NCBI GenBank assembly: GCA_017552985.1
Contig: JAFZNO010000013.1
Location: 124,001-188,000 of the forward strand
DNA from: Lachnospiraceae bacterium
GTDB taxonomy: Bacteria > Bacillota > Clostridia > Lachnospirales > Lachnospiraceae
Length of the DNA stretch: 64,000 bases
Direction: 5' to 3'
This document shows, piece by piece, positions 890 to 63,913 of this stretch. The notes under the pieces are model-generated. The model saw nothing but the letters and a program-made list of their open reading frames with translations. It was not told the DNA's origin and searched no databases. Every line of letters starts with the position of its first letter. The first letter of the stretch is position 1. A program made the translations under genes and the position numbers.

Positions 890-3421
890 TTATGGTTTTG
901 GGGTCTGTTTTTGCGCATCGATCACGGCAAGCACCAGGAAGAGATAATTCGAAGAACCGCCGCCCATGACGTACTCCGCCTGCTGCCACAGGAAAGGATA
1001 ATCCAAAAGCTCCGGAAGATCCGGCTGGATCAATGCCGTTCCGCTGACCACGCCGCCCGGCACGTAGGACCAATCCGCGCGGTTTATCCCATACGCCACC
1101 GTCATGGACCTTGCACCGACGCCGGAAGCAAAGGATGCCGTATTGGAACCCGGATGACATCCCAGAACAAAATTCAGTACGTTCTCCAGAAATTCCTTCC
1201 CAAACAAGTCAGGAAAGGCCTTGTGCAGGAAATAATAACGGAAGGCCATGCCCTGAAGGCCCCAGCCGGCGCCGTAAACCATGGAGCGGTACGGAACGCC
1301 GTAAGGGCTGGATTCACAATCCTTTTCCTGCTTCTCTTTTACGGAAAGCAAACTTTCCCGGAGCCTTTCAGTGAATCCTTCCTCCTTCATGCGGTCCGCG
1401 ATCCGGGCACCGACCCAGCCGAGTTCCGCCGCGAACTCAAAGAAGTACTCCTGATTCTCCCGGAGTGCTTCCAGGAAGATCTCATCACCCGTCGTCAGGA
1501 AAAGCTCCGCTGCCGCCTGCAATCCCGTGCAGATCATGCCCCAGGAAAAGACTCCCTTCTCCTGTACGGCCACCTTCCCTTCCACCATCTTTCTTCCCGT
1601 CTCCGAGCTCAAAAACAGTTCCGTCGCAGCCCGCAACGCTTCCTTCGAAAGCGTGTCGTTAAAGCCCTTCATCACCCGGGACGTGGCTGCCAGATGGGCT
1701 GCCGTGCTGAGCTCCCGCCATGGATTTTCCTCCGTAAATACCAGACGGTCATCCTCATCTCCCGGAATCCCGCGCGTCATGCCGGCAGGATCCCCAAGGA
1801 GCACATATTGCCGGAGTTCCTTACAGATAATGCCCCGGTAAAGCCTTCCCAGCGACTTGTACCCGCCAACCACGGAGAGGGCACCGTGTTCAATCTGCTC
1901 CAGCACGTCATTTCTGCCGTCAGGCTGATGGATCTCCACCAGGTGTGCCCGCTGGTCGATCGTGGAGCAGTCATAATACGTGCCAAACGCCTCGTATGCA
2001 AGGGCCAGAATATAACATTCGCCGGACTGTGATTCCACCCGCAGGTCAAAGTCTCCCGCTTCATGCCAGCCGCCCACGTTCAGCCCCGGGACCACGTCCC
2101 CGGGCTTAAATTTAGTCAGGGTGGATGAGCCCTGTCTGTAGCCGTCAAAATGATTCCGGGAGACCGGTGCCATTCTCGCGTCATCCGCATGACAATGCCC
2201 ATGCCAGAGCCGGTACTTCTCGCGCACCTCCATGTGGCACATCTGCACCGGGAGGAAATATTCCAAAACAGGCTGCCAAACGCCCCTGTCATATACGTCC
2301 TTTCCAATGCGGAAGATCGCAGACCTTACGCCCTGAAACTCAGCGAAGTACAGTCCCGGCTCCTTCACCTTGGAAAAATCAAACCGGTAATAGCGATAGC
2401 GAAGAAAATCTCCCCAAGGCTTTGCCTCGCCCCGCAGGATCTCCTTCTGACCCTCTGCCGTGATCCGGTACAGCTTCACGTCATTCAGCTCTGCCTCGCT
2501 AAAAGCTTCCGTTGGATCGGTCTCGATCACCGCGATCTTCGCCTGATCCGGATGATATCCCACCTGAGAGGTTTGCACCACGGGCGGATATTTCCACCCC
2601 TCCACGGCATTGGGACGGATCCGCCATACCAGCGCTCCCTTCGTCTTTCCAGCAGGAAGCTCACTGCTCACCGTAAACCATCCGTTATTGTGATTCATCC
2701 GCCCGTCATAGAGCTTCAACGGCACTTCCCTGCTCTCGATGGTAATGCGGGCATAAGGATCCTCCGGGCATGCCATAAATACGTGGCCCTCCGCATAGGG
2801 CGCCGCAATGACGTCGTCGGCAATGATGGGCTGATAACCGCCTTTGCCTGCCAGCTCCTGCGTCGTCACGCCTTCCTCCACGCCCTCAAAATGACCGGCG
2901 TTTTGAAAATTACTCTCCTTCGTGATCGTCGGCCCGTTGGGCTGGCGAGGAAAGATGCCCTGCTGATCATCCATGATCCAGGTCTTTCCAAAAAGATCCC
3001 CCGGATAGAATTCCAAATTAAAACAGAGCTTTCCCAGATACTTTTCGGGAATCGCCCTGTCTAAGTCCACAGTGACCAGAACCGCGTCCCCGTCTGCCTT
3101 CGCGCTCACCTGATACGTGAATTCAAAATCCGGATAAATGATGGGATTAAAGCCCTTTAGGTGGGCATCCACGTCCGGATAGGCCAGCGTCGTAATGACG
3201 GTCTGCGATTTCGGATCTACGTTTCTCTCTAATTTTTTCGGTACCGGCTGCCACTGTCCGGGCGTGGGTTCAAAGCGCACGTCGCCATTCGACGCCACGC
3301 GATGACCGTGCATGATCACGCTGATGCCAGACTGTCGCCCTGCGGGATAAAAGTCAGAAAATGCCGTGACCTGTACTCCGCCCTTTTGAAAAAGCTCCTT
3401 CTCGTTCAACTGAAATTCCAT
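890..3421 (-). CDS. Glycoside hydrolase family 9 enzyme, intracellular
   Basis: 843 residues and no signal peptide, so probably cytoplasmic. Residues 1-270 are a beta-rich region I cannot name. Residues ~282-372 fit the cellulase N-terminal Ig-like domain (QVGYHPDQAKIAV ... GLYFAEF). Residues ~380-835 are a GH9 alpha-barrel. GGWHEAGDFD at 450-459 corresponds to the GH9 nucleophile/base motif. E816 in the segment AEYVMGGGSSNYLF is the likely acid. The catalytic motifs differ from classical cellulases (GGWHEAGDFD rather than GGWYDAGD), so an exo-acting enzyme on imported oligosaccharides is plausible; the substrate is not shown. It is monocistronic, with its own terminator. Possible promoter: TTGACG at 3478-3483, 17 bp, TTACAT at 3455-3460. 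Confidence 0.82.
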   Translation of the reverse strand: MEFQLNEKELFQKGGVQVTAFSDFYPAGRQSGISVIMHGHRVASNGDVRFEPTPGQWQPVPKKLERNVDPKSQTVITTLAYPDVDAHLKGFNPIIYPDFEFTYQVSAKADGDAVLVTVDLDRAIPEKYLGKLCFNLEFYPGDLFGKTWIMDDQQGIFPRQPNGPTITKESNFQNAGHFEGVEEGVTTQELAGKGGYQPIIADDVIAAPYAEGHVFMACPEDPYARITIESREVPLKLYDGRMNHNNGWFTVSSELPAGKTKGALVWRIRPNAVEGWKYPPVVQTSQVGYHPDQAKIAVIETDPTEAFSEAELNDVKLYRITAEGQKEILRGEAKPWGDFLRYRYYRFDFSKVKEPGLYFAEFQGVRSAIFRIGKDVYDRGVWQPVLEYFLPVQMCHMEVREKYRLWHGHCHADDARMAPVSRNHFDGYRQGSSTLTKFKPGDVVPGLNVGGWHEAGDFDLRVESQSGECYILALAYEAFGTYYDCSTIDQRAHLVEIHQPDGRNDVLEQIEHGALSVVGGYKSLGRLYRGIICKELRQYVLLGDPAGMTRGIPGDEDDRLVFTEENPWRELSTAAHLAATSRVMKGFNDTLSKEALRAATELFLSSETGRKMVEGKVAVQEKGVFSWGMICTGLQAAAELFLTTGDEIFLEALRENQEYFFEFAAELGWVGARIADRMKEEGFTERLRESLLSVKEKQEKDCESSPYGVPYRSMVYGAGWGLQGMAFRYYFLHKAFPDLFGKEFLENVLNFVLGCHPGSNTASFASGVGARSMTVAYGINRADWSYVPGGVVSGTALIQPDLPELLDYPFLWQQAEYVMGGGSSNYLFLVLAVIDAQKQTPKP

Positions 3422-53432: not shown

Positions 53433-54236
53433 TTAGGCTTCCAGCTGGTAGCCGAGCCATGCGAGGATGGCGAGGGGGGCCGTCTCGGTGCGGAGGATGC
53501 GGCGTCCAAGGGTGATGGGCTCGATGCCGGCCTCCTGGGCTGCCTGGATTTCGGCTTCATCAAAGCCGCCCTCCGGGCCAATAAAAATGGCAATCGACTG
53601 GCCGGGCTTGATGCTCTCTATGAGCTGACGCGTCTTCTCCATCCCTTCCGCAAGCTCATAAGGAATGAGCTTCACGTCCATTTCCTTCGCAAGCTCCAGC
53701 GCTTTCTTAAAGCTCACGGGTTCCTTCACTTCCGGGATGATGCCGCGCTTGCTCTGCTTTGCGGCAGCCTCGGAAATCTGCTGCCATCTGGCCGTCTTTG
53801 CCTTCGCTTTTTTCTCATCGAGTTTTACCACGGAGCGCTTTGTCTCCACGGGGATCACTTGATAAACGCCAAGCTCCACGGACTTTTGAATGATGAGCTC
53901 AAGTTTGTCCGCCTTGGGAAGTCCCTGAAACAAGTAAATCTTGGAGGGAAGCTCCACGCCATCCTCCTTGATAAAGCGAAGTTCGCACTCGACTGTAGCT
54001 TCCTGCCACACACCGCCTGCAATCCCGATCCCACAGGCTTCCGCATGCTCACCTTTCTCATGAAAGGCCCGAATGGCGCAGCGGTACTCCTTCCCGTCCT
54101 GCCCATTGCTGACGGCAAGCTCTTCGCCACTCTTCATCCGCAACACGTTTTTGATATGATTTACGTCCGCGCCCGTGATCGTCACCGTCTTATTTAGGGC
54201 GTCAATTTGCGCTTGATCCACAAAAAACTGATACAT
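53433..54236 (-). CDS. rsmE: 16S rRNA m3U1498 methyltransferase
   Basis: 267 residues. N-terminal PUA-like domain (~1-75) and C-terminal SPOUT knot domain with IFIGPEGGFDEAEI and LGRRILRTETAPLAIL. Methylates U1498 of 16S rRNA. In these bacteria it usually follows prmA; here the toxin cassette separates them. Confidence 0.95.
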   Translation of the reverse strand: MYQFFVDQAQIDALNKTVTITGADVNHIKNVLRMKSGEELAVSNGQDGKEYRCAIRAFHEKGEHAEACGIGIAGGVWQEATVECELRFIKEDGVELPSKIYLFQGLPKADKLELIIQKSVELGVYQVIPVETKRSVVKLDEKKAKAKTARWQQISEAAAKQSKRGIIPEVKEPVSFKKALELAKEMDVKLIPYELAEGMEKTRQLIESIKPGQSIAIFIGPEGGFDEAEIQAAQEAGIEPITLGRRILRTETAPLAILAWLGYQLEA

Positions 54237-54279: not shown

Positions 54280-55365
54280 CTACGTGAGAAAGGTTAATTT
54301 GTGCGCAGGCGTTTGTTTCATGGTTTTTTCTATCATGTTGTATAAAAGAAGCGTGGTGTTTTCATTCTCTCCACCCAAAATCTTCTGTAGATACACCATG
54401 CACGGGTTCACCCAGTTTTCATCCGGGGATACGACACAAAATACTGCGTCTTCAGCCGTACTTCCTACTCCCTTCCACTTCCAGCCGTAACCGGTTACCA
54501 GGGCATGTCCATAAAGGCATCCAAGCCCAATGGCGACGTCCGCAACGTCCCCATACTGTCTGGGATATCGCCCGGTACGTATCACCTTATCCACAGCCTT
54601 GTAAACTCGCGCCGCCAGATCCTTACCCTCAGAATACTTGGGGATCCAAAACAGCTTTCTTGCGTAGGCAATCTCACTGTTGATCTCCGACGTCACCTCG
54701 TCATCCAGATCACCGACATACGCTAATCCCTCCGCTTCGGGAGAAGACTGTTCATTCGGTATGCCCGCTGCATCAGCATGATTCTTCTCACCCGCAGCTG
54801 CAGGCGCTGCCTGTTCCTGAACCGACTGTTCCTCACTGTCCCAGACCAGTTCAAATTCAAAACCGGTCAGGCCGTTCTCTTCCACTGCCTGTTTGAATGC
54901 ATCCGAAACGAAAGGCCATCTTCTTCTCTCGTCTACAATCTTGAAAATGTGATGATTCTTTAATTCATCGCACTCTCGAAAAGAGTATTTGATAAACCTC
55001 ATGATTCCACCATCACTATATGTTTTGTATATCGACTCTTTGTAATCAACGACATCCAAAATGGCCGTTATGTTGACTGCCACAAATTTCCTCTCACTAA
55101 ACACCAGTTCCAATTCTTCTGATGAGTTCTCAATTAATGGCCTTAATATCCGTAAAGCATTTTCACTTAGCACGGGAATTGTAAATCCAGGATAATCACT
55201 CCATTTTGGTCTCTTTTTTTTCTCCAATGGCTCAACGGGTAAGGGAATCCATTCAGACTTTAGGGATCGTCCGTCAAAGGCCTGAAGTTCATCTGCAGTA
55301 AAATCTTTTACTGGACATAAATTCTCATACTTATTAACTTCCGCACATAGTTTCCATATCTTCAT
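54280..55365 (-). CDS. Probable two-domain immunity protein (Imm43-like + DUF3806-like)
   Basis: 361 residues, no signal peptide, cytoplasmic. N-terminal ~180 residues fit the Imm43/DUF1629 immunity fold (PGFTIPVLSENALRILRP, FVAVNITAILDVVDYKES, HHIFKIVDERRRWPFVSDAF). After an Ala/Glu-rich linker, ~235-330 resembles DUF3806 (DVAIGLGCLYGHALVTGYGW, CVVSPDENWVNPCMVYLQ). Starts 24 bp after the toxin stop, with a ribosome site, so it is cotranscribed. Two-domain architecture suggests protection against more than one toxin, or a fusion of two genes. Confidence 0.78.
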   Translation of the reverse strand: MKIWKLCAEVNKYENLCPVKDFTADELQAFDGRSLKSEWIPLPVEPLEKKKRPKWSDYPGFTIPVLSENALRILRPLIENSSEELELVFSERKFVAVNITAILDVVDYKESIYKTYSDGGIMRFIKYSFRECDELKNHHIFKIVDERRRWPFVSDAFKQAVEENGLTGFEFELVWDSEEQSVQEQAAPAAAGEKNHADAAGIPNEQSSPEAEGLAYVGDLDDEVTSEINSEIAYARKLFWIPKYSEGKDLAARVYKAVDKVIRTGRYPRQYGDVADVAIGLGCLYGHALVTGYGWKWKGVGSTAEDAVFCVVSPDENWVNPCMVYLQKILGGENENTTLLLYNMIEKTMKQTPAHKLTFLT

Positions 55366-55389
55366 AACACATTGTCACCTTTCTCGAAA

Positions 55390-58300
55390 TTAATTTGGGA
55401 ATGTTCCGTTTAATAACATAGTAGCAATATCTTCCAGAATTTCCCGCGCTCGTTTTTCGCTTGTTGCATCTTGCAGTAATCTATTTACGGTCTCATAGTA
55501 CTTGTTTGTGTGCAAACTGGGATGGTATGCTGCGGGCGAAACATTCTTTACAGTTGGTAGAAACACTCCATTAACCGCATCATTTATATCTATCCCATAT
55601 TTTAACAAAATCGCTCTAGCCTCCCTAGCTCCTTTTGCCCTCCCTGCAACAATATGATGCGTTGCAAACGGAAAATTAGGTGTTACCTTTCCAAGTTTTT
55701 TTATCATGTTGTCTCTTAATACTCTTGCACTTGGTTTGGATCCCTTTTCCAAAATCTTTATTGCATTGTCAGCATACCCTGCTTTCTTTAGCAGTTTTGC
55801 AAGCCCTTTCCTTTCTATATCCGTCATTCTTGTAAGGTCGGATTTTGCAAGTTTCATAATTGCTGCATCAAATTCGTCACTTTTGGATACCTGTTTCGCC
55901 AAATCAGGAAAGTTTTTTTCCAAAAACTCAACAAGCTCGATTATTAATGATGGATTATCTGCATTCTTCGCAATAAACTTAACACACTTTCCTGAAGAAC
56001 CAGCAATATCACCGAAAACGGGAAATAATCCCACCATGCTTAGTCCCGTCATCAGAGGTCTTCCGTAATATGTATTTGCTGCAACGTCACGAATGTCAAT
56101 TAGCGGAAGAAAACTACCTACAATCTGACCGGCCATTGTAGGAAAATCCTGCGGATCCTTAATGAAATCTCCTTTAAGAGCTCCATTCAAAAAAGCGAGC
56201 AGATATTCATCCCATGTCATGTCATAAACATAAGGACTAGTACCTTCGGCCATTTCTTGTTTATCAAGTCTTCCGTCATGATCCGCATCTTCCTCAAGCG
56301 GATCATATCCCAAATCCACCTCAAATCCATCTCTAAGTCCGTCATAATCGGTATCCTGACGCTTAGCCGCCGTTCCCCAGACATACAACTCATCTTCATC
56401 CCACAAGCCATCATGATCTGTATCCTGATCGCATGGATTGCAAACAAAATGTGCAAGTATTCGCACTTTTGTTTTATCTTCATTTAATTCATAAGAACAT
56501 CCGGTAACTTCATCTCCGTCGAAAATACCATCATCATCCGTATCTTTGTCATTCTCATCTAAATGAATGGGTTTATTTCCATAAGCTACAATATTTCTCT
56601 CATAAAAATCAGCCAGACCGTCTTCGTCCGTATCCGTTTTATCATCAACGCGATAGTATACTTGCTCATATAACCAATTTATCAGATCATTTGGGCTGTC
56701 CGGATTTCTGGTTTCACTAAGATAATCCCCATTTACTTTAAGCAAGTAATTTGTTTCTTTTCTTATATCATCATCTGAATAACTTCCATTGTTGTTCCAA
56801 ATATTATAATATGCGAAAGATACCGTGCTTTTCTTTACGTTATGCTCCCATAGCTGAATCGCATTCACTTGCGAAACATCTTTTTCCATTATGCCATCAT
56901 CAATAAAGAAAACCATATGTTTCTCTTTATCATGATCATCCGTATCCAACATGGAATACGCTAATCTTGAGCCCTTAGAATATCCGGTAGCCCCTTCAGA
57001 TTTAAAATACTCAGACGTTAAAAATGATTTTAATAATTCTTTGTCATTGGTTAATTCTTCCGTAAAGCTTTCGGCAACATCTGCACACCTAATGATTCCC
57101 ATCTTACAACCATCAGGCATTTTATCAATCAAATCCTTGGCATATTGTAATCTTTTATAAAGAGGATCTCTATTTCCCATGGAAAGTGAGTCTTCTATTA
57201 CCAACACCACTTCGGTCTCAGCTTGACCCCAAAATTGATCGGCATCTCTCCACACCTGTTTTTCATAATACCATCCGTTAAACATGAATTTACTGAAAAA
57301 CAAAAGATAGGTAGAAAAATGCTTAACCTTTGCAATAGCAACATTATTAATCACGGTAGTTTCTATTGCTTCAAGTTCCTGTGTTTCTTGATTAAAATAA
57401 CATATAATTGGATCAAACTCAGGATCATTTAATAATTCTTCCGGAAACTCGAATCTAATAGTTGCTTCAGATATGTCTCCTCGTACTGAAAAATCGTATG
57501 CGCCGCCTACATACTCTTTTGCATCCTCTGGAATATAATACGAATCGTCCTTATGAACTGAAAGACTATCTGCCTGCTCTCCAGTTAATTCAGCTTCAAC
57601 GGAAACCCTTACATTATCTTCATCCTGCGATACGACAATGACGCGAACGCGAGCATCATATCCATTGGGATCTGACCCTAACGTAATTTCCAACCCATCC
57701 CAAATCTTATCACCATCAGAGTCCTTATTTGTTGGATTTGTATTATGGATGCGAAGTTCCTCTTCATCCTGTAAACCATCTTCATCCGTATCTTTATTTT
57801 GCGGATTCGTAGAAAGCAATATCTCATCATAATTTGATAATCCATCGCCGTCTTCGTCATCCTGCGCATCGCCAATTCCATCGCCATCTGAATCTGGATT
57901 CGTAGGATTAGTTAGCGTAAAGAACACCTCTTCATAGTCACTTAATCCATCACCATCTGAATCCGGCAAATCCTTCCTTGTTCCTAAATACTCCTCATAA
58001 TAATTTGGTAAACCGTCCTCATCGTCATCATTTCGGTCAAGTTCAGTTTGTGAATTATCATCGTTTTGCCATATTATTACTATGTCATCTTTGATTATGA
58101 CGCCTGACTTTTCCCTAGCAAAAACTTCTATGGTATTTCGGCCTTCCGACAACTCTAGGGCTTGTGTCGTCCATTCAGAAGCAACAGGGATGGCATATCG
58201 CTTAGAACCACCTTCCTCGTTTATTTCAAGCCACAACTCATCTATTAACTCCGCTCCCGAAAGAGTACCGTGCAGAACAATCTCGCTATTTGACGATCTT

Positions 58301-59175
58301 ACTTCGTTCGGTATTTCCGTACCCTCAAAATCAAATTTATCTATCTGCAAAATGCATTCTTGTACTGCTTCTATTTGATTTACGTCATATAAAACAATAT
58401 TCGTGGGTTCACTTTTATCGCCTACGGCATTAAACCCAAATAAAATCGTTTGCCCGGGCAAAATATTAGCATTATAACCATTATTTTGTATTACGTAATG
58501 ATTGTTTTCATGTTTTATAGTCGATGCATTCCAAATATCATATATCTCACCGCCAAAATCAAATTCAATTACCCAATCTTCTAAGCTAGATCTGTCTAAT
58601 CTGTTCGAGACAGCGATTTCAGCCGTATATCCATCATCCCACTGACTATTTATTCTAAAATCAACTGAATAGATTTCTTGATCAACCTGATCTAAATTTC
58701 CTAAAAACAGATAACGAACTGGAAAATTCGTAAAATCGCCTTGTCCTCTAAATCCAAAACTGACTTTTTCCCCCACATTAATATCTTGGTTCCATCCTGC
58801 ATTTTTAATCTTGTATCCCGTTTCCGTTTTTTCATCAATGGCAGCATTCCATATATCAACCACACTTCCAGCCCATGTCATATCCAAACACCAATTTTGA
58901 ATCGACTCGGAACTCTCATTAGCGATAATTACCTCAGCAATATATCCATCATCCCACTGATCCAGGAGGCTAAACTGCACGTGACACCCCACTGCGTTAG
59001 ATACCTCCAAGCATGCACTTTGGGACATATTATTATTTTCAATACTCTGCGCCGCTATTATGCCAGTTTGTCCAGAAAGCTGCTCGGAATATGCGGTGAC
59101 TTGAGAATCCACACATAAAACCAGCAAAGCCACCGTAAGGAACCACGCCAAACTCTTCATCAATTCTCTTCTCAT
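55390..59175 (-). CDS. Secreted polymorphic toxin: CBM2 x2, TSP3, VWA, AHH nuclease
   Basis: 1261 residues from the ATG at 59175 (AGGAGG upstream). Order: signal peptide ~1-29; CBM2-like modules ~62-165 and ~170-265 (both with QWDDGY and DIWNA); Ig-like ~270-370; TSP3 calcium repeats ~382-500 (DSDGDGLSDYEE type); beta domain ~505-625; VWA ~654-815, with MIDAS start EDSLS (Glu in place of the first Asp); more TSP3 repeats ~848-978; a helical pre-toxin region ~985-1070 (AGQIVGSFLPLIDIRDVAAN); AHH nuclease ~1168-1256 with THH at 1172-1174, NGVFLP and HPSLHT. It should bind cellulose or a cell surface, and the released nuclease would kill competitors. Confidence 0.87.
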   Translation of the reverse strand: MRRELMKSLAWFLTVALLVLCVDSQVTAYSEQLSGQTGIIAAQSIENNNMSQSACLEVSNAVGCHVQFSLLDQWDDGYIAEVIIANESSESIQNWCLDMTWAGSVVDIWNAAIDEKTETGYKIKNAGWNQDINVGEKVSFGFRGQGDFTNFPVRYLFLGNLDQVDQEIYSVDFRINSQWDDGYTAEIAVSNRLDRSSLEDWVIEFDFGGEIYDIWNASTIKHENNHYVIQNNGYNANILPGQTILFGFNAVGDKSEPTNIVLYDVNQIEAVQECILQIDKFDFEGTEIPNEVRSSNSEIVLHGTLSGAELIDELWLEINEEGGSKRYAIPVASEWTTQALELSEGRNTIEVFAREKSGVIIKDDIVIIWQNDDNSQTELDRNDDDEDGLPNYYEEYLGTRKDLPDSDGDGLSDYEEVFFTLTNPTNPDSDGDGIGDAQDDEDGDGLSNYDEILLSTNPQNKDTDEDGLQDEEELRIHNTNPTNKDSDGDKIWDGLEITLGSDPNGYDARVRVIVVSQDEDNVRVSVEAELTGEQADSLSVHKDDSYYIPEDAKEYVGGAYDFSVRGDISEATIRFEFPEELLNDPEFDPIICYFNQETQELEAIETTVINNVAIAKVKHFSTYLLFFSKFMFNGWYYEKQVWRDADQFWGQAETEVVLVIEDSLSMGNRDPLYKRLQYAKDLIDKMPDGCKMGIIRCADVAESFTEELTNDKELLKSFLTSEYFKSEGATGYSKGSRLAYSMLDTDDHDKEKHMVFFIDDGIMEKDVSQVNAIQLWEHNVKKSTVSFAYYNIWNNNGSYSDDDIRKETNYLLKVNGDYLSETRNPDSPNDLINWLYEQVYYRVDDKTDTDEDGLADFYERNIVAYGNKPIHLDENDKDTDDDGIFDGDEVTGCSYELNEDKTKVRILAHFVCNPCDQDTDHDGLWDEDELYVWGTAAKRQDTDYDGLRDGFEVDLGYDPLEEDADHDGRLDKQEMAEGTSPYVYDMTWDEYLLAFLNGALKGDFIKDPQDFPTMAGQIVGSFLPLIDIRDVAANTYYGRPLMTGLSMVGLFPVFGDIAGSSGKCVKFIAKNADNPSLIIELVEFLEKNFPDLAKQVSKSDEFDAAIMKLAKSDLTRMTDIERKGLAKLLKKAGYADNAIKILEKGSKPSARVLRDNMIKKLGKVTPNFPFATHHIVAGRAKGAREARAILLKYGIDINDAVNGVFLPTVKNVSPAAYHPSLHTNKYYETVNRLLQDATSEKRAREILEDIATMLLNGTFPN

Positions 59176-59209
59176 TTTCCCCTCCTGAAACAATCGATAT
59201 TTTTAACTC

Positions 59210-60193
59210 TTACTTCCTCGCGGTCACGCTGACCCACTCGCCCTGATACGTTACCTCAAGCACTTCCATGCCTGCTGCTTTCACTGCCTCGACAACGGTC
59301 TGCTCCTTGTCATCAATAATTCCGGAAGTAATATAGATTCCGCCGGGTTTTAGCTGATGGAGGATGACGGGCGTCAGGGGCACGAGAACGTCCGCAAGAA
59401 TATTTGCGACAACAATGTCATATTTTTCATAACCCACCTGATCCTGGACTTCCTTCTCCGTGATAATATTGCCGATCATCATGGTAAACTGCTCGGGGCG
59501 GATCCCGTTATTTGCGCAATTATCCTCCACGGCAGGCACGGCACAGGGATCCAGGTCCGTTCCCACCACGTGCTTCGCGCCAAACATGAGGGAGAGAATG
59601 CCAAGGATGCCGCTTCCGGTGCCCACGTCGAGAAGCTCCGTCTCCGGGGTGATGAACTTGCGAAGCTGGCGGATGCAAAGCTGCGTGGTCTCGTGCATGC
59701 CCGTTCCAAAGGCCGTGCCGGGATCGATGTGCAGCACCATGCGCTCGCCATCCTCTGGCTTTACGTCCTCCCAGGAAGGAATGACAAGTATGTCATCTAT
59801 ATAGAATTGGTGGAAATATTGTTTCCAGTTGTTGATCCAGTCAATGTCCTCGGTCTCGTCCACGGTGATGGTACCCTCACCGATCTCGCAGAATGCGCGA
59901 AGATCGTCAAGCTCCCGCCTCACGTCCTCCAAAATGGATTCCCTCGTGCGCTCCTCGCCCTGTACCAAAAGCGTTCCGTCCTCCTGCTCCTCCACGAAGA
60001 AGCTCAGGTACGCCACGCCGTCATCCGCAGGTCCCTCCGGCAGGATGTCCACAAACATCTGCTCCTTCTCCAGCGCCGTGAGCGGAACCTTATCCTCGAT
60101 CTGCGCGCCCTCCAGACCGATGTCATAAAGGGTGCTGATGATAATGTCCTCCGCGTCCGTAACCGTCTTTATCTTAAACTTTGTCCACTTCAC
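59210..60193 (-). CDS. prmA: Ribosomal protein L11 methyltransferase
   Basis: 327 residues from a GTG at 60193, 9 bp after AAGGAGG; longer readings lack a site. N-terminal substrate-binding domain, then the SAM domain: IDPGTAFGTGMHETTQLC, LLDVGTGSGILGI, GTDLDPCAV, ANILADVL. Methylates L11 in the cytoplasm. Stands 16 bp beyond the toxin gene start. Confidence 0.95.
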   Translation of the reverse strand: MKWTKFKIKTVTDAEDIIISTLYDIGLEGAQIEDKVPLTALEKEQMFVDILPEGPADDGVAYLSFFVEEQEDGTLLVQGEERTRESILEDVRRELDDLRAFCEIGEGTITVDETEDIDWINNWKQYFHQFYIDDILVIPSWEDVKPEDGERMVLHIDPGTAFGTGMHETTQLCIRQLRKFITPETELLDVGTGSGILGILSLMFGAKHVVGTDLDPCAVPAVEDNCANNGIRPEQFTMMIGNIITEKEVQDQVGYEKYDIVVANILADVLVPLTPVILHQLKPGGIYITSGIIDDKEQTVVEAVKAAGMEVLEVTYQGEWVSVTARK

Positions 60194-60380
60194 TTTCCAT
60201 ACCCTCCTTGGACCTATTGCATTCTTCCGATCTCCAAAATCCAAACGTATTGCCGCGTAAATCCGCACATCGCCGTCGTTTCACGCAATCACCCAAATTA
60301 TATACGCAAATGCTCCCTTTTGTCAAAAGAAAACCACCCCCCATCCTCCCGAAAACGTTCATTTCGCCGCTTTTTGTCTA

Positions 60381-61383: not shown

Positions 61384-62664
61384 ATGAATGCAGCAATAAA
61401 AATACTGAAGATTAACGGAATGTCCCTGCTCGCCCTACCCCTTTTGCTTGTGGCAACGTTTTTTAAGCTTCTGGCCAAGGCATTTGAAAAGATCACGATC
61501 TTCCTGGCGATGGGGTTCTTTGCTCTGGTACTGATTGTCTTGTTGACAGCGGGGCTCACGCCAAAGGATCTCGTGGGATTCCTTGTCGTGATCGTCGGAG
61601 TCATAGCGGTCTTTGGCATCAGCATTCTGATTTTCAGCTGGATCCTCTCGCTGATCTCCAGCGTTATGATGGTGATCTGGAACGCGATCATCTCCCTGTT
61701 CGACAATCTGTACGAGATTTCCTATAACTGGTATCTCTCCCTGTTTACGTCGTGCGAGGCGGATTACCGCATCCTTTCGATTAACGGAAAGAAGGTTCCA
61801 AATGCCATCGCCTGCATCTTTTTCACGATTCTGAAGGGCGTGAGCTGGTGCATCACGATGCTGGTTTCCCTGTCCTATATCATCGCCAGCATCTTCAGCG
61901 TTGGCCTTGTGCTCCTTACTCTCATCAGTGAAAACAGAACCCTGAAACATGACTTTGGAATGAACCTGATCCAATATACGCAGCATTGTCAGTTGCATTC
62001 CGTTTTGTTCGGCATTTTCCTCTATATCGTGATCGTAGGCATTATCATCGTTGGCGTCATGGCACTGGCATCGGAATGGTATGAATGGGGTCAGGAGCTC
62101 AGAATGACGAGCAAGGAGATTTCGAAGGAAGTGACTGATCTTGTAAAGAGTGACCTGAAGATGGCCACTGGTTCATCTGATGAGGTGGAAGGAAATCTTA
62201 CTTACCTGAAAAAACTGGAGGAACATCTGGATTCGCTGGAGCCTCTAAGCGCGCAGGTAACTTCCGTGTTAGACCAGAAGGACAATCCCCTTCTCCGGAG
62301 CTACTGGGGCATTTACATGCGCAACTTAAATCCCCTGGTTGACGAATGCTCTGACAAGAAGTCCATCGACATCCGCCGCTTCAAGCAGTTGATCCCCCAG
62401 ATCCAGATGCTGGACAGGCAGCGCGATGACGTGCAAAAGCTGGTAAAAAAACTGGCATCCGAATTGGAAAAGCCTTCCGGAGTCGCCGTATTTTTCTCCG
62501 GCTGTGACACTCTGGACAAGCTGGAAAAGCGTTACAAGAACCTCTGCAAGGCTTATCACCCCGACATTGCCGAGGGTGACACGGAGACCTTCCAGAAAAT
62601 GCAATCCGAATACCATGCATTAAAGGCATCCCTTAGCACTCCCGTAAAATCTAAAAAGTCATAA
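61384..62664 (+). CDS. Membrane protein with C-terminal J-domain
   Basis: 426 residues. Four to six membrane helices up to ~230, then a helical region (KEISKEVTDLVKSDLKM, ~240-256; YLKKLEEHLDSLEPLS) and at ~375-420 a J-domain-like segment, LDKLEKRYKNLCKAYHPDIAEGD, with the key HPD triplet. It would recruit DnaK to the membrane. Located beside dnaJ but on the other strand, so independently expressed. Confidence 0.8.
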   Translation: MNAAIKILKINGMSLLALPLLLVATFFKLLAKAFEKITIFLAMGFFALVLIVLLTAGLTPKDLVGFLVVIVGVIAVFGISILIFSWILSLISSVMMVIWNAIISLFDNLYEISYNWYLSLFTSCEADYRILSINGKKVPNAIACIFFTILKGVSWCITMLVSLSYIIASIFSVGLVLLTLISENRTLKHDFGMNLIQYTQHCQLHSVLFGIFLYIVIVGIIIVGVMALASEWYEWGQELRMTSKEISKEVTDLVKSDLKMATGSSDEVEGNLTYLKKLEEHLDSLEPLSAQVTSVLDQKDNPLLRSYWGIYMRNLNPLVDECSDKKSIDIRRFKQLIPQIQMLDRQRDDVQKLVKKLASELEKPSGVAVFFSGCDTLDKLEKRYKNLCKAYHPDIAEGDTETFQKMQSEYHALKASLSTPVKSKKS

Positions 62665-62731: not shown

Positions 62732-63913
62732 TTATTTCTCCCAGAATTTCTTTTTCTTTCCGCCATGTCCGCCGCCGTCATCTTTCTTGTCATCACTGGA
62801 TCCAGAAGCTCTCTGCACGGCCGTCAGGGAATCATCGCTGGCCTCATCAAACTTGCGAAGCAGTTCCTTCGCCTCGTTGCTCAGCTTGTCAGGCACCTGT
62901 ACCACAAGCGTTACGTAATGGTCACCGCGGATTTCCTTATTCCGCAGGGAAGGAACACCCTTGCCCTTTAAGCGGACTCTCGTATCCGTCTGCGTGCCGG
63001 CCTTAACGTCGTAAATCACCTTGCCGTCTACGGTGTCGATAAAGATCTCACCGCCAAGCGTTGCCACCGCAAAGGAGATGGGCACGGTGGAAAAGATGTT
63101 CACGTCCTGACGCTGGAAGATGGGATGGCGTCCAACGATTACTTCTACAAGCACGTCGCCGCGCGCTCCGCCATTGATGCCAGGCTCGCCAAGACCAGGC
63201 ATTCTGATGGCCTGACCGTTATCAATACCTGCAGGAATGTCTGCGGAATAACGCTTCTTCATAGGGATAAAGCCTGATCCGCGACAATCCGAACACTTCT
63301 CTTTAATGATCTTACCCGTTCCCTGACAGTTGGGACACGTCGACCTGTTGCGGACGGTTCCAAAGAAGGTCTGCTGCGTGATCGTGATCTGTCCGCTGCC
63401 ATTACATTTAGAACAGGTCTCGGGCTTCGTACCAGGCTTTGCGCCGTTGCCGCCACAGGTCTTACAGGTTTCCTTTACCGTCAGTTCTATCTCTTTCTTC
63501 GTACCAAATACGGCCTCTTCAAAGGTTACGCGCACGCTGGTGCGAATGTTGGCACCCTTCATGGGTCCATTGCTTGCGCCCCTGGATCTGCCGCCACCAA
63601 AAATGTCGCCGAAGATGTCGCCGAAGATGTCGCCGAAATCCATGTTGCCAAAGTCGAATCCGCCCGCGCCGCCGGCACCGCCGTCAAATGCGGCGTGGCC
63701 AAACTGATCGTACTGACGTCTCTTCTCGGGATCACTCAATACGGCATATGCCTCGGAAGCTTCCTTAAATTTTTTCTCTGCTTCCGCGTCACCGGGATTT
63801 ACGTCCGGGTGATATTTTTTGGCCAAGACACGGTATGCCTTCTTAATGGCCGCCTCGTCAGCAGTTTTATCTACGCCAAGAACCTCATAATAATCTCGCT
63901 TTTGTTCTGCCAT
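62732..63913 (-). CDS. dnaJ: Chaperone protein DnaJ
   Basis: 393 residues, complete. J-domain ~6-70 with HPD ([11 protein letters not shown]), Gly/Phe linker with a threefold GDIF repeat (from a 12-bp DNA repeat, ~92-107), four zinc-knuckle repeats [32 protein letters not shown] (~150-215), C-terminal substrate domains. Co-chaperone of DnaK, whose gene would be expected just beyond the window edge. Confidence 0.97.

What the first reader, a model, noticed from the sequence alone, without database searches (positions are those of the whole stretch)
54280..59175. Cellulose-binding, VWA-bearing AHH nuclease toxin with a two-domain immunity gene
A secreted protein joins two CBM2-like modules, two blocks of calcium-binding repeats, a VWA domain and a C-terminal AHH nuclease, followed 24 bp later by an Imm43-like/DUF3806-like fusion. 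AHH domains are known in polymorphic toxins, but display through cellulose-binding modules is an unusual arrangement that suggests competition among fibre-attached bacteria. There is no LXG, WXG or Rhs part, so delivery must be by Sec secretion and surface binding.
Basis: partly seen in the sequence, partly recalled or inferred. Interest (0 to 1): 0.88.

Follow-up and report, generated by a model that had tools for sequence, protein, structure and literature searches.

The report
Cellulose-binding polymorphic toxin with immunity gene
A bacterium carries a secreted toxin gene for a DNA-cutting enzyme that looks built to stick to plant fibre, together with a likely antidote gene; it belongs to a series of related proteins that keep the fibre-binding front and exchange the toxic end, which suggests that bacteria may fight on shared food particles.

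Summary
The minus-strand gene 59175-55390 encodes a signal peptide, two CBM2 modules, two TSP3 blocks, a VWA domain and a C-terminal AHH nuclease. A 361-residue protein follows 24 bp later. That neighbour is Imm11-like (PF07791) plus an unnamed second domain, not Imm43/DUF3806.

Twenty-seven proteins with the double-CBM2/TSP3 front (the window's included) carry about 13 C-terminal types; 22 of 27 have a close downstream ORF. The window's pretoxin module carries a CDI EC869-type nuclease in three other genomes, and the AHH/Imm11 pair rides on an Rhs carrier elsewhere. This is a polymorphic toxin system on a carrier found in no paper searched.

Two new points. (1) In the nearest same-genus genome searched, the toxin is precisely absent and an orphan immunity gene lies between prmA and rsmE; synonymous divergence shows a recombination joint at codon 151/152 of that gene. 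(2) C-termini without the pretoxin module have mostly exported or membrane neighbours (27 of 31), those with it mostly cytosolic ones (1 of 5 exported).

Toxicity, cellulose binding and entry are inferred, not shown. New variant of a known kind.

The parts
55390..59175 (-). toxin gene, 1261 aa from the ATG (the mechanical ORF begins at TTG 59193, 1267 aa)
59089..59175 (-). Sec-type signal peptide (hydrophobic N-terminus, 15-residue hydropathy 2.54)
   Evidence: sequence; no signal-peptide predictor was available
58744..58980 (-). CBM2 module 1, Trp at all three planar-face positions
58426..58677 (-). CBM2 module 2 (Trp, Trp, Tyr at the three positions)
57685..58029 (-). first block of TSP3 calcium-binding repeats
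57298..57648 (-). conserved spacer domain without a Pfam match (labelled UPA in my scripts; the label is recalled, not a test)
56617..57225 (-). VWA domain; the metal-site motif reads E-x-S-x-S instead of D-x-S-x-S
56224..56610 (-). second block of TSP3 repeats
55777..56223 (-). pretoxin (PT) module, shared with relatives that carry a different nuclease; candidate entry module
55435..55698 (-). AHH nuclease domain (motif reads THH; both His, Asn, HxxxH and Tyr kept)
54280..55365 (-). immunity gene, 361 aa
54820..55365 (-). front half of the immunity protein (Imm11-like), found alone as a 176-182-residue protein beside AHH domains in L065 and L067; low G+C
54283..54819 (-). rear half of the immunity protein, higher G+C, no Pfam match; found elsewhere as the end of a 565-aa protein (L066) and in a 100-109-codon frame (L068)
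54910..54914 (.). recombination joint (codon 151/152 of the immunity gene) against the nearest same-genus genome searched
60297..60326 (-). 12-of-12 sigma-70 promoter-like site upstream of prmA; possible promoter of prmA-toxin-immunity-rsmE
   Evidence: 13 promoter-like sites found, 14.5 expected in shuffles; the only 12-of-12 site listed
59210..60268 (-). prmA, upstream flank of the insert (name by recall, no family search)
53433..54236 (-). rsmE, downstream flank of the insert (name by recall, no family search)

Best explanation
It is a polymorphic toxin-immunity pair on a Sec-secreted, substrate-binding carrier. Inferred working: the protein is exported by its signal peptide; Ca2+ rigidifies the TSP3 stalks; the two CBM2 modules hold it on cellulose in plant fibre (or on a cell-bound polysaccharide); the C-terminal AHH nuclease is delivered into a neighbouring bacterium, with the PT module as the candidate entry device; there it cuts nucleic acid. 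The cytosolic Imm11-like neighbour binds the AHH domain and protects the producer. The carrier stays and the C-terminus is exchanged together with the antidote, here through a recombination joint inside the immunity gene. Shown by sequence: domains, exchange of C-termini, pairing, orphan immunity gene, recombination joint. Inferred: secretion, cellulose binding, entry, killing, neutralisation.
For: Domain profiles over cut-off. 27 single-ORF proteins (window's included) with double CBM2, TSP3 and a complete C-terminus carry about 13 C-terminal types; 22 of 27 have an ORF within -60..100 bp, median gap 9. The same PT module with a CDI EC869-type nuclease: L043 on the same carrier (38% over 833 aa; PF21111 8.1e-7), L160 as an orphan cassette in the same genus (4e-6), and L087 on a front without CBM2, with VWA and TSP3, followed by three tandem homologous antidotes (C-terminus alone 9.9e-7). 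The AHH/Imm11 pair on an Rhs carrier (L065: AHH 61%, Imm11-like 45%, Rhs core 1e-19), as a remnant plus antidote (L067), and on the same carrier plus a two-part antidote (L040). Zhang et al. 2012 list Imm11 with Tox-AHH (PMC3482391, passages). The nearest same-genus genome searched keeps the antidote without the toxin; codon-resolved joint, 12 of 34 against 78 of 92 fourfold sites identical, p 1.8e-7. Aromatic CBM2a positions kept. The host has a CBM2 endoglucanase and two GH9 matches.
Against: No experiment and no structure (prediction switched off). AHH on this carrier was seen in two places only (window and L040, whose toxin lies in two ORFs). PT is rare: 2 of 397 family genomes. A near downstream ORF is not distinctive by itself: 94 of 183 other same-strand neighbour pairs in these loci are as close. 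Five of 27 carriers lack one, and in some C-terminal groups the downstream ORFs are unrelated to each other (NC..W and Lipase_3 groups). The VWA metal site is imperfect in the window protein. CBM2 folds can also bind xylan or chitin (recalled; the best solved match of CBM2-1 is in a chitinase), so cellulose is likely, not proven. Entry into a target cytosol is unexplained.
Confidence: 0.82

Rival explanations
1. Cell-surface display: the CBM2 modules bind the producer's own wall or capsule polysaccharide, so the protein is a contact-dependent toxin held on the producer cell, and fibre plays no part.
For: Pfam reports no other anchor domain in the protein. L087 has a different N-terminus in place of CBM2 with TSP3, VWA and PT kept, so the module may simply be an anchor.
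Against: The Trp/Trp/Trp and Trp/Trp/Tyr positions of CBM2a are kept in most copies; solved relatives are modules of cellulose, xylan and chitin enzymes; the genome's own endoglucanase uses a CBM2.
Confidence: 0.25
2. The carrier is a secreted adhesin-enzyme family for fibre colonisation; the C-terminal enzymes serve nutrition or matrix remodelling and the nuclease degrades extracellular DNA; the neighbour genes are accessory.
For: Related tandem-CBM2 proteins carry subtilases instead of toxins (own genome L101, and L048). Several C-termini are hydrolase-like (Lipase_3; C39-like below cut-off). Close downstream neighbours are common in these loci, 94 of 183.
Against: Known interbacterial toxin domains (AHH, CDI EC869) sit on the same carrier with an Imm11-type or tandem downstream genes; 8 of 33 loci have further homologous downstream ORFs; the downstream proteins of C-termini without PT are exported far above background, 27 of 31 against 72 of 208.
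Confidence: 0.08
3. The locus is a decayed or non-functional relic: the VWA metal site and the AHH motif are altered and only one copy exists.
For: E-x-S-x-S in VWA and THH for AHH.
Against: One uninterrupted frame of 1261 codons with a good ribosome-binding site; both His, Asn, HxxxH and Tyr of AHH kept.
Confidence: 0.05

Closest known systems
Polymorphic toxin systems, Tox-AHH/Imm11 (Zhang et al. 2012, PMC3482391; passages seen)
   Same: C-terminal AHH nuclease, adjacent Imm11-type gene, exchange of C-termini; in relatives orphan cassettes and tandem antidotes.
   Different: The terms VWA, von Willebrand, TSP3, thrombospondin, CBM, cellulose and sortase do not occur in the held main text (first 300,000 characters; the search listing counts one 'von Willebrand' in the whole file, which I did not see); the carrier here is CBM2-TSP3-VWA-TSP3.
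CDI EC869-type nuclease modules (PF21111; CDI papers seen only as search listing with abstract starts)
   Same: The same toxin family rides on the window's carrier and PT module in L043 and on PT in L160 and L087; a separate module before the toxin parallels the CDI cytoplasm-entry domain.
   Different: No two-partner or filamentous domain in the Pfam scan of the window protein; PT matches no Pfam family.
Tandem-CBM2 subtilases of the same genome and a relative (L101, L048)
   Same: Same double-CBM2 front.
   Different: Peptidase_S8 body instead of TSP3-VWA-toxin.

Membership tests
Polymorphic toxin system | conserved N-terminal carrier joined to different C-terminal toxin domains | tested here: met
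   27 carriers, about 13 C-terminal types; L043 keeps carrier and PT, changes the toxin
Polymorphic toxin system | immunity gene directly downstream | tested here: met
   24 bp in the window; near ORF in 22 of 27 carriers, against 94 of 183 for other neighbour pairs
Polymorphic toxin system | same toxin-immunity pair on other carriers | tested here: met
   L065 Rhs-AHH with Imm11-like. AHH also in L174 (Rhs core over cut-off), L150 (PT-HINT; Rhs core on a neighbouring ORF below cut-off) and L173 (Rhs by eye only); their neighbours were not compared
Polymorphic toxin system | toxicity and neutralisation | not testable with these tools
   needs the bench
Tox-AHH (PF14412) | profile match over cut-off | tested here: met
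   56.7 bits against 22.3
Tox-AHH (PF14412) | [AG]HH, N, H, H, Y residues | tested here: inconclusive
   THH instead of [AG]HH; residues that fit the other listed positions present
Imm11 (PF07791) | profile match over cut-off and full length | tested here: inconclusive
   34.6 bits against 22.1, but only profile positions 110-190 of 194
Imm43 / DUF3806 | profile match | tested here: not met
   Imm43 not among Pfam matches at E <= 1; DUF3806 no match in the own genome at E <= 10
CBM2a (cellulose-binding) | three aromatic residues of the planar face | tested here: met
   alignment with 1exg/6qfs; W/W/W in repeat 1, W/W/Y in repeat 2 of the window protein; which residues form the face is recalled
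LXG/WXG (T7SS) or Rhs carrier | LXG, WXG or RHS domain in the toxin | tested here: not met
   no such Pfam match at E <= 1

The most novel reading that the evidence does not exclude
A class of polymorphic toxins whose adhesion module binds the shared food substrate rather than the victim: secreted toxins are laid on plant fibre, and exchangeable C-termini attack whichever bacterium settles there, with surface-acting enzymes countered by exported antidotes, and nucleases entering through a separate PT module countered by cytosolic antidotes. In the chromosome, the toxin and the toxin-facing half of the antidote are replaced as one allele while the rear half of the antidote stays.
Probability: 0.42. 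Interest if true: 0.85.

Novelty: new variant of a known kind. Interest (0 to 1): 0.68.

Why it matters
Gram-positive fibre degraders have few described weapons outside LXG/T7SS toxins (my knowledge, not searched). A Sec-exported, substrate-bound polymorphic toxin series would explain how attached cells could defend a particle without a secretion machine, and gives directly testable pairs. An antidote with a recombination joint inside the gene gives a natural case for asking which part of an immunity protein decides specificity.

Tried and rejected
Phage records hold no relative of the toxin at E <= 1e-5, and a pattern scan of viral contigs found none of the PT+AHH part; plasmid records give matches in 41 records, none covering 80% of the toxin, the ten listed being TSP3/VWA-range matches; PADLOC has no match. 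Imm43 and DUF3806 rejected. Sequence searches of solved structures gave nothing convincing for PT+AHH (best E 0.27), the antidote (0.64), the C39-like group or the L043 PT plus C-terminus. Rapid selection on the antidote's front half, my first idea, was rejected: dS is 2.05 there against 0.25-0.41 in the rear half and flanking genes, which points to allele replacement. Seven paper searches listed no paper on CBM2/VWA/TSP3 polymorphic toxins; I read only passages of PMC3482391 and PMC12419801 and saw the rest as listings with abstract starts. The weak matches of the class search include one that looks false (L182, phosphoglucomutase-like by eye). My crude export rule calls the L043 antidote exported although its relatives L087 and L160 are not. 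My home-made VWA and spacer profiles missed L087; Pfam finds its VWA.

Full report
What is there. The minus-strand gene 59175-55390 starts at an ATG with AGGAGGGG just upstream and encodes 1261 residues; the next ORF, 55365-54280, follows after 24 bp. Pfam finds CBM_2 (two stretches), five TSP3_bac stretches, VWA_2 and AHH, all above cut-off, and Imm11 (not Imm43) in the neighbour. AHH has one match in the genome. The pair lies between prmA (59210-60268) and rsmE (53433-54236) in a low-G+C block (about 0.33-0.42 inside, about 0.5-0.59 in prmA and rsmE), and G+C rises again inside the immunity gene. The only 12-of-12 promoter-like site listed for the region lies upstream of prmA (60326-60297); the number of promoter-like sites as such does not exceed chance (13 found, 14.5 expected).

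Is it polymorphic? A pattern scan of named genomes with the CBM2 part gave 30 loci, and 19 of 299 family genomes match the TSP3/spacer part (own genome included). Among the ORFs of the loci I read, 27 single-ORF proteins, the window's included, have two CBM2, TSP3 and a complete C-terminus of at least 150 residues (split ORFs, contig-end cuts and proteins without two CBM2 are left out; three of the 27, L034-L036, come from one MAG). Their C-termini fall into about 13 types: C39-like 7, DUF3289 3, Lipase_3 3, an NC..W group 3, two unnamed groups of 2, and one each of DUF4474, AHH, EC869, M6-like, L061, L080 and L091 (AHH and EC869 share one phmmer cluster through PT and are split by Pfam). Pfam support: Lipase_3 3.3e-17 (L053), DUF3289 1.1e-30, DUF4474 2.7e-14, CDI EC869-like 8.1e-7; the C39 and M6 matches are below cut-off and several C-termini match nothing. 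I scanned 20 of the 41 clustered C-termini besides the window's; the others are placed by phmmer similarity. In 22 of 27 an ORF of at least 80 residues starts within -60..100 bp, median gap 9. As a control, 94 of 183 other same-strand neighbour pairs in these loci are equally close, so closeness alone is weak evidence. In 8 of 33 examined loci further homologous ORFs follow.

The pretoxin module. Residues 991-1139 match no Pfam family but recur at 40-43% identity in L040 (AHH), L043, L087 and L160. The C-termini of L043 (8.1e-7), L160 (4e-6) and L087 (9.9e-7 alone; 25.2 bits in the whole protein, below the cut-off of 27) are CDI EC869-like; L043 and L087 share 41% there. So the same PT carries two nuclease families. 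L087 has VWA, TSP3 and PT but another N-terminus, and three tandem antidotes; L160 is an orphan cassette beginning at the end of the TSP3 block in a genome of the window's genus. PT occurs in 2 of 397 family genomes. In a class-wide search with alignment A1 (PT and AHH), 11 of 391 genomes match, own included. L176, in another family, again shows VWA and TSP3 before a PT-like stretch. Four weak PT-like matches (L178-L181) lie before other C-terminal domains, of which Ntox50, DUF2247 and Ntox37 are recognised in three. One match looks false (L182).

Where the antidote acts. By a crude rule (hydropathy of the first 55 residues, or a lipobox), the downstream protein is exported or membrane-bound for 27 of 31 C-termini without PT and for 1 of 5 with PT (Fisher p 0.005; 36 of 43 rows had a near ORF, the other 7 were left out). 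Background ORFs of 100-400 residues in the same loci: 72 of 208. This fits antidotes placed where the enzyme acts: outside for lipase- or peptidase-like ends, inside for nucleases. The rule is simple, the sets are small, relatives are not independent, many C-termini are of unknown activity, and two of the four 'cytosolic' cases without PT have a hydrophobic helix further in.

The AHH/Imm11 pair elsewhere. A search with the antidote gave matches in 8 of 299 family genomes, own included. L065 has a protein with an Rhs core (1e-19) ending in AHH (61% identical), followed by a 182-residue protein like the front half only; L067 has an AHH remnant plus a 176-residue antidote; L040 has the same carrier in two ORFs plus a 360-residue two-part antidote. 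The rear half occurs in L066 as the end of a 565-residue protein and in L068 as a 100-109-codon frame. This suggests that the front half suffices elsewhere and the rear half is an addition. Zhang et al. list Imm11 among Tox-AHH antidotes (PMC3482391, passages).

An orphan antidote and a joint. rsmE was sought in 41 same-genus genomes, own included, and found in 39; 30 gave loci. Of these, 28 hold both genes, and in 23 of 28 the aligned ends of prmA and rsmE are within 130 bp (the other two are the own genome, where the locus is too short, and L113, a contig end). In the nearest genome by rsmE (G407, 95% identical) a 368-codon ORF lies between them: the two-part antidote without the toxin. The alignment to the window stops at 59209 and resumes at 55369. 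A genus search found no PT/AHH match in G407 (94% complete) at E <= 0.001. Between the window and G407, antidote residues 1-174 have dN 0.171 and dS 2.05; the rest 0.031 and 0.25; rsmE 0.033 and 0.39; prmA 0.038 and 0.41. Fourfold sites are identical in 12 of 34 up to codon 152 and 78 of 92 after (p 1.8e-7). Both copies have a low-G+C front (0.374, 0.378) and a higher-G+C rear (0.510, 0.506), so the two-part gene is probably older than the split and the front was replaced later in one lineage. Whether G407 lost the toxin or the window's lineage gained it is open. In L043 a relative of the whole system sits directly upstream of prmA-rsmE, so this neighbourhood has been used at least twice.

Cellulose binding. 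CBM2-1 aligns with the Cex CBM2a structures 1exg and 6qfs (E about 2e-10); its best solved match is a module of a chitinase, 6bt9 (7.4e-13). At the three aromatic positions, first repeats (45, from the carriers and other CBM2 proteins read) have W in 44, 42 and 36, with Y in most of the rest; second repeats (39) have W in 39, W in 34, Y in 34. The genome encodes a GH5 endoglucanase with CBM2 and two GH9 matches, so fibre is a plausible habitat. That these residues form the binding face is recalled knowledge.

Most likely working: secretion through Sec, capture on fibre by CBM2, TSP3 stalks and VWA as spacer or adhesive, entry by PT, cutting of nucleic acid by AHH, protection by the front half of the antidote. 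Every step after the anatomy is inference. The carrier class was not found in the papers searched, which cover only openly licensed PubMed Central text.

Noticed in passing
L003/L101 (own genome, contig C14): A tandem-CBM2 subtilase (Peptidase_S8) preceded by two similar small ORFs, at least one lipoprotein-like by eye; the same front end used without a toxin.
   Followed up: partly
L065:662-1318: Just downstream of the Rhs-AHH/Imm11 cassette another Rhs-repeat ORF carries a dockerin-like stretch (Dockerin_1, E 0.0011, below cut-off): perhaps another way to put a toxin on a fibre-bound complex.
   Followed up: no
window 56617-57225: The VWA metal-ion motif is E-x-S-x-S here, while most relatives have D-x-S-x-S.
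   Followed up: partly
window 55435-55698: The AHH motif reads THH in the window but AHH in the three relatives aligned.
   Followed up: partly
L112, L116, L117, L129 between prmA and rsmE: Different cargo between prmA and rsmE in same-genus genomes: orphan antidote, a 310-residue membrane protein, an ATPase fragment, a deaminase-like gene (names by eye).
   Followed up: partly
window 1103-2218: GH9 match in an 850-codon frame, near the other end of the window.
   Followed up: no
window 61384-62664: A plus-strand membrane protein ending in a J-domain-like stretch (HPD), next to dnaJ at 62732-63913 (by eye).
   Followed up: no
L178, L179, L180, L181: A short hydrophobic PT-like motif precedes Ntox50, DUF2247 or Ntox37 domains (three of the four; L178 has no toxin match) outside the window's family: perhaps a common pretoxin element without a Pfam model.
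   Followed up: partly
L034, L037, L051, L087 downstream of the toxin: Arrays of homologous downstream genes.
   Followed up: partly
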